A stretch of 64,000 nucleotides of DNA from Metaphire vulgaris. Lineage: Eukaryota > Annelida > Clitellata > Crassiclitellata > Megascolecidae. The stretch covers positions 12,654,009-12,718,008 of the forward strand of contig CM030864.1 in NCBI GenBank assembly GCA_018105865.1. Direction: 5' to 3'. The number at the start of each line of letters is the position of its first letter. Positions within the stretch are counted from its first letter, which is position 1. The position numbers and the translations under genes are program-made. Shown here piece after piece: positions 18,701 to 24,700 of this stretch. A model generated the notes under the pieces. The model saw only the letters and a program-made list of their open reading frames with translations. It did no database searches and had not been told where the DNA came from.

Positions 18701-21700
18701 ATACCATTCAATCCCGAATCCCTGCTTCCAAAAAAATTAGCCTGGGATTGCAATCTCCAAGTAGTAAGTACAGTGTTTTCTTCTTGTCTTTATGCTTTGT
18801 ATTTCATTGAGGACCTGTGGAATAAAACTGGCAATTTTGTGCGAATTTGTGAAACGTTTGTTTTCAGGTACAGCCTGATATAACAAAATATTTTGAGAAT
18901 ACAATCACAAACCTACGGATTGTTGCCAGAAACAGCCTGAAGAGCTTGCGACAACCAGTTGACAAGTCAATGTAAATCAGAATGAATTAAGTTACCAGAT
19001 AGAATCAACGATGATCAGGGCGTAGTGATGGGGGGTATATCGGTATATATATACCCCCCAAAATCAGACAACCTTAAAAATTTTCAATGTGTTTTTTTTA
19101 AGATTTCAAAGTTTTTAAGATTTATACCCCCTCCCCCAATATCACATTATACCCCTCAAATCAAATTCCTGGCTACGCCCCTGATGATGATTTCTGTAGA
19201 TTTGGTCATTTGTAGTAAAGTCTCTGCAATTATTTAAGATTTTAGCAGGGAGTTGTGAGTGAGTTTTCACAGTTTATGCTTCCTTTGGAATTGAGAGTTG
19301 AGCTGTTTGGCATAATATTTGCCTTATTTGCTAATTGTCTATGGAATGGTTCCTATCCATTTTGTCTAAATTCATTTTTTCACTGACCATTTGCACAAAT
19401 ACACTTTACATGAAATTCACGCTGCTATATCCTATGTGGCTGAGAAATAATGGAGGTAATTGTCGGGTTTTTTTGCAGATGGGCTGCAACTCCAGCCATT
19501 GTCAATGCCTTCTATAGTGCAATAAAGAACCAGATAAGTGGGTGTTTTAGATCACTAGTGTTTGAAAAAGTCAGATTATGATCGTGATAATCAAATAAGC
19601 TAATCAAACATTGAACACAGCTGTATATTAATGACAGATGCAGAGACTTGGAGCTATTTTGACCTTGTGACTTGGTCTTATTTATTGAAATCCTCATAAC
19701 AGTACCAGTGCTGTAGCTTACATTTACTAAGACAATGTATGCTTTCAGTATGCTCTTGAATAGTAGATATTTTGAATTTTTTAATGATTTCATAGTATTC
19801 CTTTGCTTTCATTAGAATCTTCTATTTTTTTGACTGATTCACATATTTCTATAATCTAAATCCTCAGCAGAAATTGTCTATAACAGTGGTTCTTAAACTT
19901 TCTCAGACCATGGACTGGTAATAACCTTTTCTTAAGGCTGGTCAACCACCAGCCTAAATAACTTGCACAAAATAAATAAATAAATAAATATATTCAAATC
20001 CTAATCATGTAATATTGTTGTATTCGTAGAAATGTAGGTAATGATACATTAATGATTAAGAATGTGCTTCAAGAATTTCAATGAAAACACCAGTTAAGAA
20101 TAAAAACACAAGCACCACAAAAGTCTTCCTTCGTTAATAATTTTAATTTATTTCTGATTCTTTTGCAGGCCATCACTTTAAGAACCACTGTTCTATAAGT
20201 CTATGGATCATGGCATCTGCAGTTTCAGAAATAGTTTGCATTATTTACCATGCTATAATAGCTCTGTTAAATGGTACAGTTACATGTACCGGTACTATAA
20301 TATTTGCATTACCAGTATATATATCCTGGTACAATGATATTGGCTAGAATGGATTTTTGCTCCTCTAAATCGATCTGTTTTTGTCAGTCTTTCCAGCGGG
20401 CATTCTCCAGCCTCCATTCTACCATGCCACCTATCCAAAGTAAGCATTCCAGTACTTGTTCAGTGGAAGTGTCTTTCTGAGAAATAGATTTCTACCTATT
20501 TGTCAGTTGCTATTTCTGTTTGGTGAGATTTACATAATATGCTTTTGTGGCAGTGAAACAATTAGCCAAGAGGTGTTTCACTGGCATTTTAATTGTTGTT
20601 GGTTGTATTCAGATGATCTACAAAAGTTTTTGTAGATGAAGTTTATATGTTTCGTGATGGTCGAAGCCTCATTTAGTCTTTTTGAGACTGTAAAAAAGCT
20701 GTTTCTTTGTTATTTGTTAAATTCTTGGCAAAGGCATATGTTATAATGTTTATTGTTGTTAATTAGAAAGATTGAATGAAGTGAGATAAGATCAGAATAT
20801 CCTCATATTTGGTATTCTGAAGGCAGTGCACACCAATACTGGTAGTCACTTCTATAGTATGGCACATATTTCCATTCAGACCATTGCAGCATTAAGTTTT
20901 CATCTTCAATATGCAATTTTAAGCAGCATGCATGTTCAGAAAGTGGCAGATGCCCTTAGATGCATGGGCATTTAACCTGTTATCACTTACTTCATAGGTA
21001 TTTACAGTTCAGTGGCATAGCCATTGCAGTGGCACATGAGATTACTCATGGATTTGACGACGAAGGTATAACCAACCGTAGCTGTTTAGTCCACCGTCCG
21101 TTGTCTGTGCATCTGTGCTTGGCATGTTCTTGTTCCTATGTCTTTTCACATCACTTGGTGTAGTCAGAACCATTTTCAGTCCTGGAGTTCTAGATGTCTA
21201 GATGAAAAAAATTTTGGTGTTCATCTTTCATTGGTTAAAGCAGAATTGCTTGCAACAATATGCATTATGATAAAAATATAACACAAAGAATTATTTCAAT
21301 TTCATAAATACAGAAAGCTAATATATATATTAAAAATAGGTTTAATACAGAGAGTGTGTATTGATACGGACAGTGGACCAGATTAGCGTTAATTGTGCCT
21401 GTATTGACTAAGATCTATGACGCCTAAGTCTAGAGCAACCTGTTGGGCCGTAATTTGTCCAAATAAATAGGTTGCTGTTGTGTCAAATCTCTTATTGGCC
21501 TAACCATTTTGTTGCATTTATTGAATCAAATTTTCTCAGATTGAATAGTTTATTGTTCATGAAGAGAAATTGCATTTAATTTAGCAAAACATTTCATTGC
21601 ATTTTGACAAATTGATCGCTGATGTTGACCGATTGTCAGATGATTTTTCATTGCTATATTTAGAAATTTTGTACAGATTTATTTTTGATGCTTTGGTGTT

Positions 21701-24700
21701 GGAAAGTGTCAAATAGCACAGCAAGTATTTTGTGAAAATTTTTGTGTTTCATAGATTGTTCAGAATTCCTTTCGTTATTCGAATTTCCAGTCTCATTGTT
21801 TCTTTATTGTAAGCTACCTCCTTTCAAAACTCTCTGTGCAAACAAACAAATACTCAACTAGATCCTCCTCTAAGGAATGACTGGAAACCACTCGGGACAT
21901 TCGCTCCGGCCGGATACTTTGATATTCCGTAATATCTGGATTCACCAAATACTTATGTCACGAAGCTACTGAATCCAAATATTGATTTTTGCTTTGGTCT
22001 TTAATTTCTTTGTTGAATGTTTCATTGTAACTTTACAGATTTCTTTTAACTTTCACGTTGAAATTGCGATTTTAAAACTTCTCAAGATACTTTATGCATG
22101 TGGGACATGTGATAGCTTAATCATGCCTTAATGAGTCATTTTAGTTCTGAGAAAATGATTATCACATTTACTTTCAACTCCAGGTAGTCTACCCAAAACT
22201 CAGGAACTCATTGCTTAAGCATGTGTGCACTGCTAATTCATTACAAATATTTAGAACAACATTGAAACCCCGTCTATTTTACCTGGCTGATCCACTTTAG
22301 ACTGTCGCCTGTTTGTCCGGCCGGATACTCTGGATTTTGATCTCTGATTCTTGAATGATTTTGATTTGGTGTGCCATCGGCTGATGCTTCTGTGCATTAT
22401 GATGTGGCACTATAGAAGTTCAATATTAGATTAGATTGTAACTTGTTTGGTAATCAGTTTCAGTGGCTTTCTTATATGTTCTGTATTTTCTTAATTTTTC
22501 TTCTTCAGTTCTTGATTCTTTGTCAGGTTAACAATTGTCATTCTGTAAGTTGTAATTCTTTGCTCAGGTCGATAAATTTTGGGGGCATTGCCACGGTGAT
22601 TGGGCACGAGCTTACCCATGCCTTTGATGACAAAGGTATAACTATTGATGAACATAATCAGCCGCAGCCTGTTTGAAAATGTCAATTAACTGATCCATTT
22701 TGTTGGTTCACTTGTACGATATGCTTTCTGTTGTATTAGGAATGCTTTGCAATTTTGTGCTGCAGATTGGACACTTTATGTATTGGAATTATCCACTTCA
22801 ATTGCTTTTTGTATTTTGGCATTGAATTAAGGCCTTCTTAGCTGGTCGAATTTGCATCTCAAGAGGCAAATGGCTATTGTTTTTTTTATTATAACGTTCC
22901 TTGTTTTTAAAAATTTTATTTAAATAACATTTAAGTATGAAAATATGCTGCTCTACTGGTACTTGCACGAGAATCAAAATTAATCTTGATTAATAATTTC
23001 ACTAACATGCATGCCGCTAAACTGCATGATCTCTAAGTCAATGTTGTGTTTCTCGGTAGTTGCACGATATGCATTGATTTGTCATAGGCAGTGTTGCTGC
23101 TGCTGCTGCTGCTGCTGCTGCTGCTGAATCGAATGGTCTTTGATCTGTTATAAGTTTGTCTGTTGTTTTGGAAAATGTGTTGGTTTGGATAGGTTTTAGG
23201 TTCTTGCTTATTTAAACGATGACATTTTTTTAAACCTTTGAGGAAACATAGAGCTGAATATGAAAATTAAAATTTTCTGCATTAAAAGAAAATTGGCTTG
23301 AGTTTGTCTTTTGGCCAAAGAAACTATGATTTATCTAATCTGCCCACTAATTGTCACCAGAAATGGCGACAACCTTGAGCATTTAAAATAAATTCACTAG
23401 TATTCTGTTACGTTCTACCGGTTTTTAGAAACTATCACTGGGTTTTTTTGAAAGATTTCAGTGTGCTTATGCTATCTTTAGTCTTACTGAAAGGATTGTC
23501 TTTCATGATGACAGCATGATGGACTTTTTCACAATCATAAAATCGTTAAATTTAGAATCATGGTTTTGATCTGTAATTAAATTCATCAAAGCATTTATTT
23601 TATATGTGATATTTTGATCTGATAGAGCTCAGTTTAATTTCTGGTGAAATATGACAATAGTCTTATTTAGCTAACACATATGCAGAATCAATGAGGATGA
23701 TGACAATGATGTTAATGATAAAAATTATGATGATGATGATGATGATGATGATGATAATGATAATAATAATAATAATAATAATAATAATAATAATAATAAT
23801 AATAATGTGATTTTAAGTGGTTTAGGAGGCTAAGTAAGCCTGTGTGAAAACCACTGATGTAACCAACAAAGATTACAAAGATGATGGTACATTTTATTAA
23901 GCATTGTCCAAAATCTGTTATGCAGAATATAGTTCAAGTATCCTTCTGTTAATTGCTCTGAATGCTTTATCGTCAGAAATATTGATGATGAAGCGCCATC
24001 TATTGACGCAACGGAGACAGTTATGTTGTCATTTACGCAGTATATCAAATTGTTGCCACACAGCATTGTTGTCTAATGCTTGTGTGGAAATATGGTACTA
24101 TCAATATCAAAGCTAAGTTTATGAATTTATTTATATTAATATTAATTAAGTGTCTCTCAGATTTCTATCACATAAAACATAGCAATTTGATCAAATTTGT
24201 TGTTTAAAATGGTGCTTGTAAGTTTGAATTTGTTTTTAAAATATTAAGAGTAACATTTAGATTGTTATACTTCTATTTTTGTATTTCATTTCTGTAACCG
24301 TATATTTTATGTTGTTTGAGCGTTGTTCAACAGATGTTGTGGTTATTTGTGCTATCATTTGACTATAATATTCAAATGAGCTTGATGAATATGCATCACT
24401 TTATAGGAAGGCAATATGACAAGGATGGAAACCTGAAGCAATGGTGGCCAGACAATGTCATCAGCAGATTCAAGGACAAGGCGCAGTGTATCATCGATCA
24501 GTACAACAACTATACGGTCAAGGAAGTCAGGATGAATGTACGTCCGTTCACTCGATTCAGATGAATCATGCTTTTGCACTGAATCTGTGAACTGATTCGA
24601 TTTTTCAGCTGTGGTGTCAGACTTATCACCCCAGATTTTCAAACTCCAGTGGGCGGAGGGGGCTTGTAGAAACAACATTTTTTTAAAACCCTGGCAGGGG

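What the first reader, a model, noticed from the sequence alone, without database searches (positions are those of the whole stretch)
20998..22635. Mutually exclusive duplicated active-site exons in an M13 protease
Two exons, 20998-21065 and 22568-22635, are each exactly 68 nt, share entry phase 2 and exit phase 1, have intact AG and GT sites (both donors gtata), and each encodes a complete zinc motif: HEITHGFDD in one, HELTHAFDD in the other. Seen directly: 44 of 68 bases and 12 of 23 residues match by hand alignment. Because 68 is not a multiple of three, including both or neither shifts the frame. Inference: one gene makes two proteases that differ in the catalytic helix and preceding strand, one neprilysin-like and one ECE-like around HExxH. 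I am not aware of such an exon pair in this family.
Basis: partly seen in the sequence, partly recalled or inferred. Interest (0 to 1): 0.92.

Follow-up and report, generated by a model that had tools for sequence, protein, structure and literature searches.

The report
Swappable active-site exons in neprilysin gene
A neprilysin-type protease gene of what is probably a marine worm carries two alternative copies of the exon that encodes its zinc-binding active site, both preserved by selection in two sister genes, so one gene can probably make two proteases with different substrate pockets.

Summary
Exons A (20998-21065) and B (22568-22635) are each 68 nt, lie between the same two exons, share phases, and each encodes a full HExxH helix. 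The decaying-duplicate test fails: a sister gene on contig C35 of the same genome carries both exons intact, in the same order and phases, and both copies evolve under strong purifying selection (dN/dS 0.045 each; six constitutive exons 0.073). The pair predates the gene duplication. A search of the 728-Mb genome found no third A-type exon among 12 matches. Form B is seen as an apparent spliced product of both genes in public contigs; form A is in none of the 323 M13 proteins listed by three searches, so use of A is inferred from selection. Mutual exclusion is supported by the frame (both or neither gives an early stop), not by RNA evidence. The 'neprilysin-like versus ECE-like' reading is superficial: B is the canonical exon, A a derived one that breaks residues invariant in those 323 proteins and changes two S1' positions (Met579, Val580 of human neprilysin). 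Best reading: a conserved mutually exclusive exon pair that switches substrate specificity, a new variant of a known kind.

The parts
20998..21065 (+). Exon A (alternative zinc-helix exon, 68 nt): [23 protein letters not shown]
   Evidence: conserved in C35 at L032:1240-1307
22568..22635 (+). Exon B (canonical zinc-helix exon, 68 nt): [23 protein letters not shown]
   Evidence: used in P0001; conserved in C35 at L032:2334-2401
20388..20439 (+). Shared upstream exon ([17 protein letters not shown])
24407..24537 (+). Shared downstream exon ([13 protein letters not shown]...)
21072..21131 (+). Intron stretch after exon A, conserved with C35 (46 of 60 matches, z 5.1), holding a GCATG at 21122
22492..22551 (+). 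Intron stretch before exon B, conserved with C35 (42 of 60 matches, z 3.8)
3666..3796 (+). Exon with cytoplasmic tail and hydrophobic segment ([11 protein letters not shown]...TWPRKSK)
   Evidence: one search printed the end as 3795; the GT donor puts it at 3796, as used
7055..7216 (+). M13 exon, start of Peptidase_M13_N
7688..7771 (+). M13 exon
8048..8250 (+). M13 exon
8770..8952 (+). M13 exon
10076..10159 (+). M13 exon
11495..11631 (+). M13 exon
12176..12269 (+). M13 exon
13773..13901 (+). M13 exon
15063..15161 (+). M13 exon
15934..16011 (+). M13 exon
18868..18971 (+). M13 exon
19479..19537 (+). M13 exon (NAFYS substrate-binding strand, role recalled)
25080..25145 (+). M13 exon with third zinc ligand (GENIAD)
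26261..26359 (+). M13 exon (followed by a GC donor)
26508..26584 (+). M13 exon (WCGTSRPE...HSPGRF)
27288..27387 (+). Last coding exon, stop codon (KKCSVW*)

Best explanation
One neprilysin-type (M13) gene carries a tandem duplicate of its 68-nt zinc-helix exon, and the two copies are used in a mutually exclusive way. Shown: the exons, phases and splice sites; B in an apparent spliced product; strong amino-acid constraint on both copies in two sister genes; frameshift and early stop if both or neither is used. Inferred: that A is spliced into mRNA in some tissue or stage, and that exon choice is regulated. Proposed effect: the membrane-bound peptidase keeps its HExxH and third zinc ligand, but exon A replaces the Met579/Val580-equivalent residues on the wall of the S1' pocket (B: Thr/Val in the window gene, Met/Val in C35; A: Ile/Ala in both) and the stretch before the helix, so the A form should accept different, probably bulkier, P1' side chains. 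Loss of wrong splice products (stop codons, presumably NMD) would enforce one-of-two; the choice itself would be made by splicing factors acting on the conserved intron just after exon A and just before exon B.
For: Both exons intact, same order and phase, in the sister gene on C35. C33 versus C35: exon A has 10 nt differences but 2 residue changes (neutral expectation 7.2, P about 5e-5); dN/dS 0.045, dS 1.04; exon B 0.045, dS 1.28; six constitutive exons 0.073, dS 1.16. Exons pair by type (58/68 and 56/68 identical, versus 41-45/68 between types), and C33+C35 are sister genes with 100/99 support, so the exon pair predates the gene duplication. Two A-type exons genome-wide: 44.2 and 43.9 bits, next 28.5, 12 matches in all. 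B-form products: P0001, a 740-residue protein from a contig of up to 3,610 nt, 664/668 identical to the model over 19 exons, and P0121 for C35. The flank after A (z 5.1) and before B (z 3.8) are the most conserved of the 16 flanks of eight exons measured. Both or neither gives an early stop. Met579 and Val580 are among the residues contacted in the S1' subsite in PMC11997989 (two passages). Precedent: coq-2 in helminths, annelids and molluscs, an equal-length pair (134 nt) that remodels an enzyme core and switches substrate (PMC7434440, passages).
Against: No A-form protein was found: the 323 distinct M13 proteins listed by three A-form searches (best 120 of each) all have Gly before HExxH where A has Ala, and in each search the best hit was a B form of one of these two genes. 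A departs from positions invariant in the 40-row alignment, so it could be a weak or inactive enzyme. No mechanism for exclusivity was demonstrated: no consistent RNA pairing, introns far longer than steric block needs (1,502 and 1,026 nt), no U12-like branch string and short AG-exclusion zones. The flanks of constitutive exon 24407 are also fairly conserved (z 2.6 and 2.9), and the flank windows were set after I had seen the BLAST extents. dS for A and B rests on 13-15 silent sites each. Only two genes of one genome could be compared.
Confidence: 0.78

Rival explanations
1. Mutually exclusive exons, but the A form is not a second protease: it is a zinc-binding yet poorly active or inactive form (for example a peptide-binding, trafficking or dominant-negative partner).
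For: A has Ala directly before HExxH and Ser eight residues before the His; each place is Gly in 323/323 listed M13 proteins. Drosophila M13 members lacking key catalytic residues are described (PMC3432130, passages).
Against: HExxH is kept in both A copies, and the third-ligand exon (GENIAD) is shared. Alanine before HExxH occurs in thermolysin-like zincins (recalled). Constraint over the exon is as strong as in B.
Confidence: 0.13
2. Exon A is a poison exon: its inclusion with B only creates an early stop and lowers expression.
For: A+B inclusion gives a stop at 22573, 436 nt before the last junction. The intron flank after A is conserved.
Against: Silent sites of A change about as freely as in six constitutive exons (pS 0.56 versus 0.59) while residues hardly change. 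A poison exon needs nucleotide, not amino-acid, conservation.
Confidence: 0.04
3. Exon A is a decaying or unused duplicate.
For: No A-form product among the 323 listed proteins. A third paralog, C29, does show two decayed zinc exons, so decay happens in this family.
Against: dN/dS 0.045 with dS about 1, and intact splice sites, phase and motif in two genes; 31% of neutral simulations of exon A would already carry a stop.
Confidence: 0.03
4. Artefact: assembly error or collapsed tandem gene copies placing two versions of one exon side by side.
For: None found.
Against: The same arrangement stands at a sister locus on another contig, with different intron lengths (1,502 and 1,026 nt) and diverged exons. 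No other exon showed a second match.
Confidence: 0.01

Closest known systems
coq-2 exons 6a/6e (C. elegans, helminths, annelids, molluscs; PMC7434440, passages seen)
   Same: Two mutually exclusive, equal-length exons (134 nt, not a multiple of three) that remodel the enzyme core; one resembles the exon of all other species and the other is lineage-restricted; substrate choice switches.
   Different: A polyprenyl transferase, not a protease. RNA and mutant evidence exist there; here use of exon A is inferred. Here the swapped exon carries the catalytic HExxH motif itself.
Mutually exclusive tandem-duplicated exons in general (PMC5740500, passages; PKM exons 9 and 10, PMC3498831, start of abstract in the listing)
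   Same: Homologous neighbouring exons with the same phases; a length not divisible by three makes joint inclusion a frameshift.
   Different: No M13 or other zinc-protease catalytic exon pair appeared in the listings; a paper on human tandem duplicated exon substitutions (PMC9741552) has none of the words MME, ECE1, peptidase, protease or enzyme in its main text.
Neprilysin (PDB 6suk, 1dmt) and endothelin-converting enzyme 1 (PDB 3dwb)
   Same: P0001, the B form, aligns along the ectodomain (632.8 bits to neprilysin over residues 60-740, 625.2 to ECE-1 over 66-740).
   Different: Those have one version of the zinc helix as far as I know (recalled). Known alternative forms of ECE-1 differ at the N terminus (recalled).

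Membership tests
M13 peptidase (neprilysin family) | Peptidase_M13_N and Peptidase_M13 domains | tested here: met
   PF05649 and PF01431 matches in the window gene; both listed for P0001
M13 peptidase (neprilysin family) | HExxH with a downstream ExxA/GD zinc ligand | tested here: met
   HEITH (A) or HELTH (B), and GENIAD in exon 25080-25145
M13 peptidase (neprilysin family) | Gly immediately before HExxH (323/323 listed members) | tested here: not met
   Met by exon B, not by exon A, which has Ala in both genes. A near-universal feature in this sample, not a formal criterion
M13 peptidase (neprilysin family) | Type II membrane protein with a C-terminal ectodomain ending CxxW | tested here: inconclusive
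   A hydrophobic segment at P0001 residues about 34-53 and the ending KKCSVW are encoded in the window; topology itself not tested
Mutually exclusive exon pair | Neighbouring homologous exons, same phases, intact splice sites | tested here: met
Mutually exclusive exon pair | Both exons maintained by selection | tested here: met
   dN/dS 0.045 and 0.045 between C33 and C35
Mutually exclusive exon pair | Transcripts with each exon alone | tested here: inconclusive
   B alone: P0001 and P0121, taken as transcripts because they span many exons. A alone: not found
Mutually exclusive exon pair | Absence of stable transcripts with both or neither | not testable with these tools
   No RNA reads available; a frameshift and early stop are predicted for both cases
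RNA-structure-controlled exclusion (docking/selector) | Conserved pairing between intron elements | tested here: not met
   Six segment pairs in two genes; best consistent pair was upstream-A with downstream-A at z -1.8 and -1.1. A weak test, only the exon-near flanks

The most novel reading that the evidence does not exclude
A peptide-signalling protease whose zinc-binding helix and S1' pocket are swapped by alternative splicing: one locus gives two neprilysins with different substrate sets, and the device was kept through a gene duplication. It would be the first case I know of a metalloprotease exchanging its catalytic motif by exon choice (none in the listings of searches).
Probability: 0.6. 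Interest if true: 0.75.

Novelty: new variant of a known kind. Interest (0 to 1): 0.62.

Why it matters
Substrate specificity in M13 proteases, which inactivate neuropeptides and hormones, is usually thought of as a property of each gene. Here the swapped 23 residues include the catalytic motif and two S1' positions contacted by neprilysin inhibitors. Two natural, selection-tested versions of the same active site on an identical scaffold would be a clean experiment on what sets neprilysin specificity. It would also be a second case, beside coq-2, of an annelid enzyme rebuilt at its core by exon choice.

Tried and rejected
Docking/selector RNA pairing: duplex energies between exon-near intron flanks in both genes, not consistently better than mononucleotide shuffles (best consistent pair z -1.8 and -1.1). 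Distant branch point: the previous AG lies only 18-41 nt before each 3' splice site. Steric exclusion: intervening introns of 1,502 and 1,026 nt are far longer than the 50 nt limit used in PMC5740500 (passage). U12/U2 incompatibility: none of three U12-like branch strings in the last 60 nt, all four donors GTAT. Weak donors as the cause: A and B donors score 6-7 of 9, inside the range 4-8 of 18 other donors. GCATG (the RBFOX core, recalled) lies 57 and 55 nt after exon A in the two genes, a lead only; the gene-wide rate is about 0.85 per kb. Structure prediction of P0001 was asked for six times and the machine was always busy, so the S1' argument rests on sequence alignment and published residue names. 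The human neprilysin number of the first zinc His (583) is recalled and agrees with Met579-Val580 standing four and three residues before it.
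Full report
OBSERVATION. Exon A (20998-21065) and exon B (22568-22635) are as described: 68 nt each, AG before, GT after (both GTATAA), 44/68 identical bases, 13/24 residues identical with the split residues, HEITHGFDD and HELTHAFDD. Spliced between 20388-20439 and 24407-24537, either exon alone keeps the M13 reading frame. Both together stop at 22573 and neither at 24417. Exon A's peptide finds exon B in the window at E = 5e-7, and no other exon of the gene showed a second match at E up to 0.01.

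THE GENE. The gene runs on the + strand from before 3666 to 27387; its first coding bases and the piece between 3796 and 7055 were not placed. The B-form model from 7055 to 27387 (19 exons) matches P0001 at 664 of 668 residues. P0001 is a 740-residue protein whose longest contig is 3,610 nt; as the gene spans more than 20 kb, I read it as a spliced transcript, which shows B in use. P0001 aligns to human neprilysin (632.8 bits) and ECE-1 (625.2 bits) along the ectodomain.

SISTER GENES. The Peptidase_M13 search gave 31 exon matches at twelve loci, the window's included, and the N-domain search 50 matches that add contigs C18, C36, C38, C40 and C42. I fetched 20 stretches of 10 kb that cover parts of nine of the other loci. 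On contig C35 a gene with the same exon order, in the part fetched, carries both exons: A-type [23 protein letters not shown] at L032:1240-1307 and B-type [23 protein letters not shown] at L032:2334-2401, both 68 nt with AG and GT sites. P0121, a 214-residue protein from a 1,001-nt contig, matches C35 exons in the B form by eye, its last residues running off frame. In a motif scan, the C9, C3, C2 (two), C37, C24 and C61 stretches each show one zinc exon; one further HExxH in the C3 stretch has no M13 surroundings. C29 shows two decayed ones. A genome-wide search with the A peptide gives C35 and C33 at 44.2 and 43.9 bits, then 28.5 bits and less, 12 matches in all; only the best candidates are scored.

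SELECTION AND AGE. Between C33 and C35, exon A differs at 10 of 68 bases and 2 residues, exon B at 12 bases and 2 residues. Random placement of as many changes gives 7.2 and 8.2 residue changes on average, with P about 5e-5 for 2 or fewer, and a stop in 31% and 19% of runs. Nei-Gojobori dN/dS (own script): A 0.045 (dS 1.04), B 0.045 (dS 1.28), six constitutive exons pooled 0.073 (dS 1.16). A and B offer only 13 and 15 silent sites, so single values are rough; further constitutive exons shared with C35 were not used. Exons of one type are closer across genes (58 and 56 of 68) than the two types within a gene (44 and 45 of 68). In a tree of 31 M13 C-terminal parts with the zinc exon left out, C33 and C35 are sisters (100/99), these with P0002 and P0021 form a clade (99/96), inside a group (98/96) that holds Ridgeia and Owenia proteins; the bootstrap had not fully settled. 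So the exon pair is older than the gene duplication. The animal is probably an annelid; this is inference from the tree. Exon A is a long-constrained coding exon, not a relic, and not a poison exon, since its silent sites drift like those of constitutive exons.

WHAT DIFFERS. In the 323 distinct M13 proteins listed by three A-form searches (best 120 of 6,624, of 1,296 and of 1,879 passing), the residue before HExxH is Gly in 323 and the residue eight before the His is Gly in 323. A has Ala and Ser there, in both genes; B has the usual residues. In PMC11997989 (two passages) the S1' subsite contacts are Phe106, Ile558, Phe563, Met579, Val580 and Trp693; Met579 and Val580 are four and three residues before the first zinc His and so lie in the swapped exon. 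At these places C33-B has Thr/Val, C35-B Met/Val, and both A exons Ile/Ala. Ala at the second place occurs in 0 of the 323 proteins. The expected effect is a changed, perhaps wider S1' pocket; this was not modelled. The 'neprilysin versus ECE' contrast fails because the ECE-like Ala after HELTH is Gly in C35-B.

HOW CHOICE IS MADE. Among 16 flanks of eight exons, the most conserved between C33 and C35 are the stretch 7-66 nt after exon A (46/60 matches, z 5.1 against 400 random pairs) and the stretch 17-76 nt before exon B (42/60, z 3.8). Exon 24407 has z 2.6 and 2.9; the rest are at most 1.9. The windows were set after the BLAST extents were seen. This fits regulated exons but rests on two genes. 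A GCATG is shared in the A element. RNA pairing, steric block, U12 incompatibility and distant branch points are not supported. In humans, 377 of 629 mutually exclusive clusters have lengths not divisible by three, and reads joining the exons were found for 83 of these (PMC5740500, passage), so the frame can enforce one-of-two. That NMD removes wrong products here is inference.

WHAT IS MISSING. No A-form protein or transcript was found. The database is clustered at 90% identity, which would merge full-length A and B forms, but P0001 is a single-member cluster, so A was not hidden there. Absence from contig-based collections is weak evidence. Use of A is therefore inferred from selection.

NOVELTY. 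The listings of searches of the open paper library showed no mutually exclusive catalytic exons in neprilysin, ECE or other zinc proteases; I judged by titles, counts and abstract starts, and most subscription papers are not in that library. The nearest precedent is coq-2 in helminths, annelids and molluscs (PMC7434440, passages), where an equal-length pair remodels the enzyme core and switches substrate. This is a new variant of that known kind: the swapped exon holds the catalytic motif itself.

Noticed in passing
L038:7133-7189 and L038:6579-6635 (minus strand): The M13 paralog on C29 has two decayed copies of the zinc exon (FNYGG...HGFDD with HExxH broken) in a repeat-rich stretch, with a shared downstream flank, so this gene may lack its catalytic motif while several other exons look intact.
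   Followed up: partly
window 21812-21871 and 22192-22437: The intron between exons A and B in C33 holds a repeat that also occurs in another intron of C35 (87% and 84% identical); its translation resembles the 3' end of a non-LTR retrotransposon reverse transcriptase (recalled pattern).
   Followed up: partly
window 26360: The exon 26261-26359 is followed by a GC donor (gcaagt), whereas the C35 counterpart has GTAAGA.
   Followed up: no
L049 and L050: M13 genes on C24 and C61 have identical zinc exons ([23 protein letters not shown]) and similar flanks; C61 (384 kb) may be a recent duplicate or an unmerged haplotype.
   Followed up: no
window 8954-9300: Long CT and CTGT microsatellite right after the exon ending 8952; further long ATA-type repeats at about 7783-7890 and 23755-23810.
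   Followed up: no
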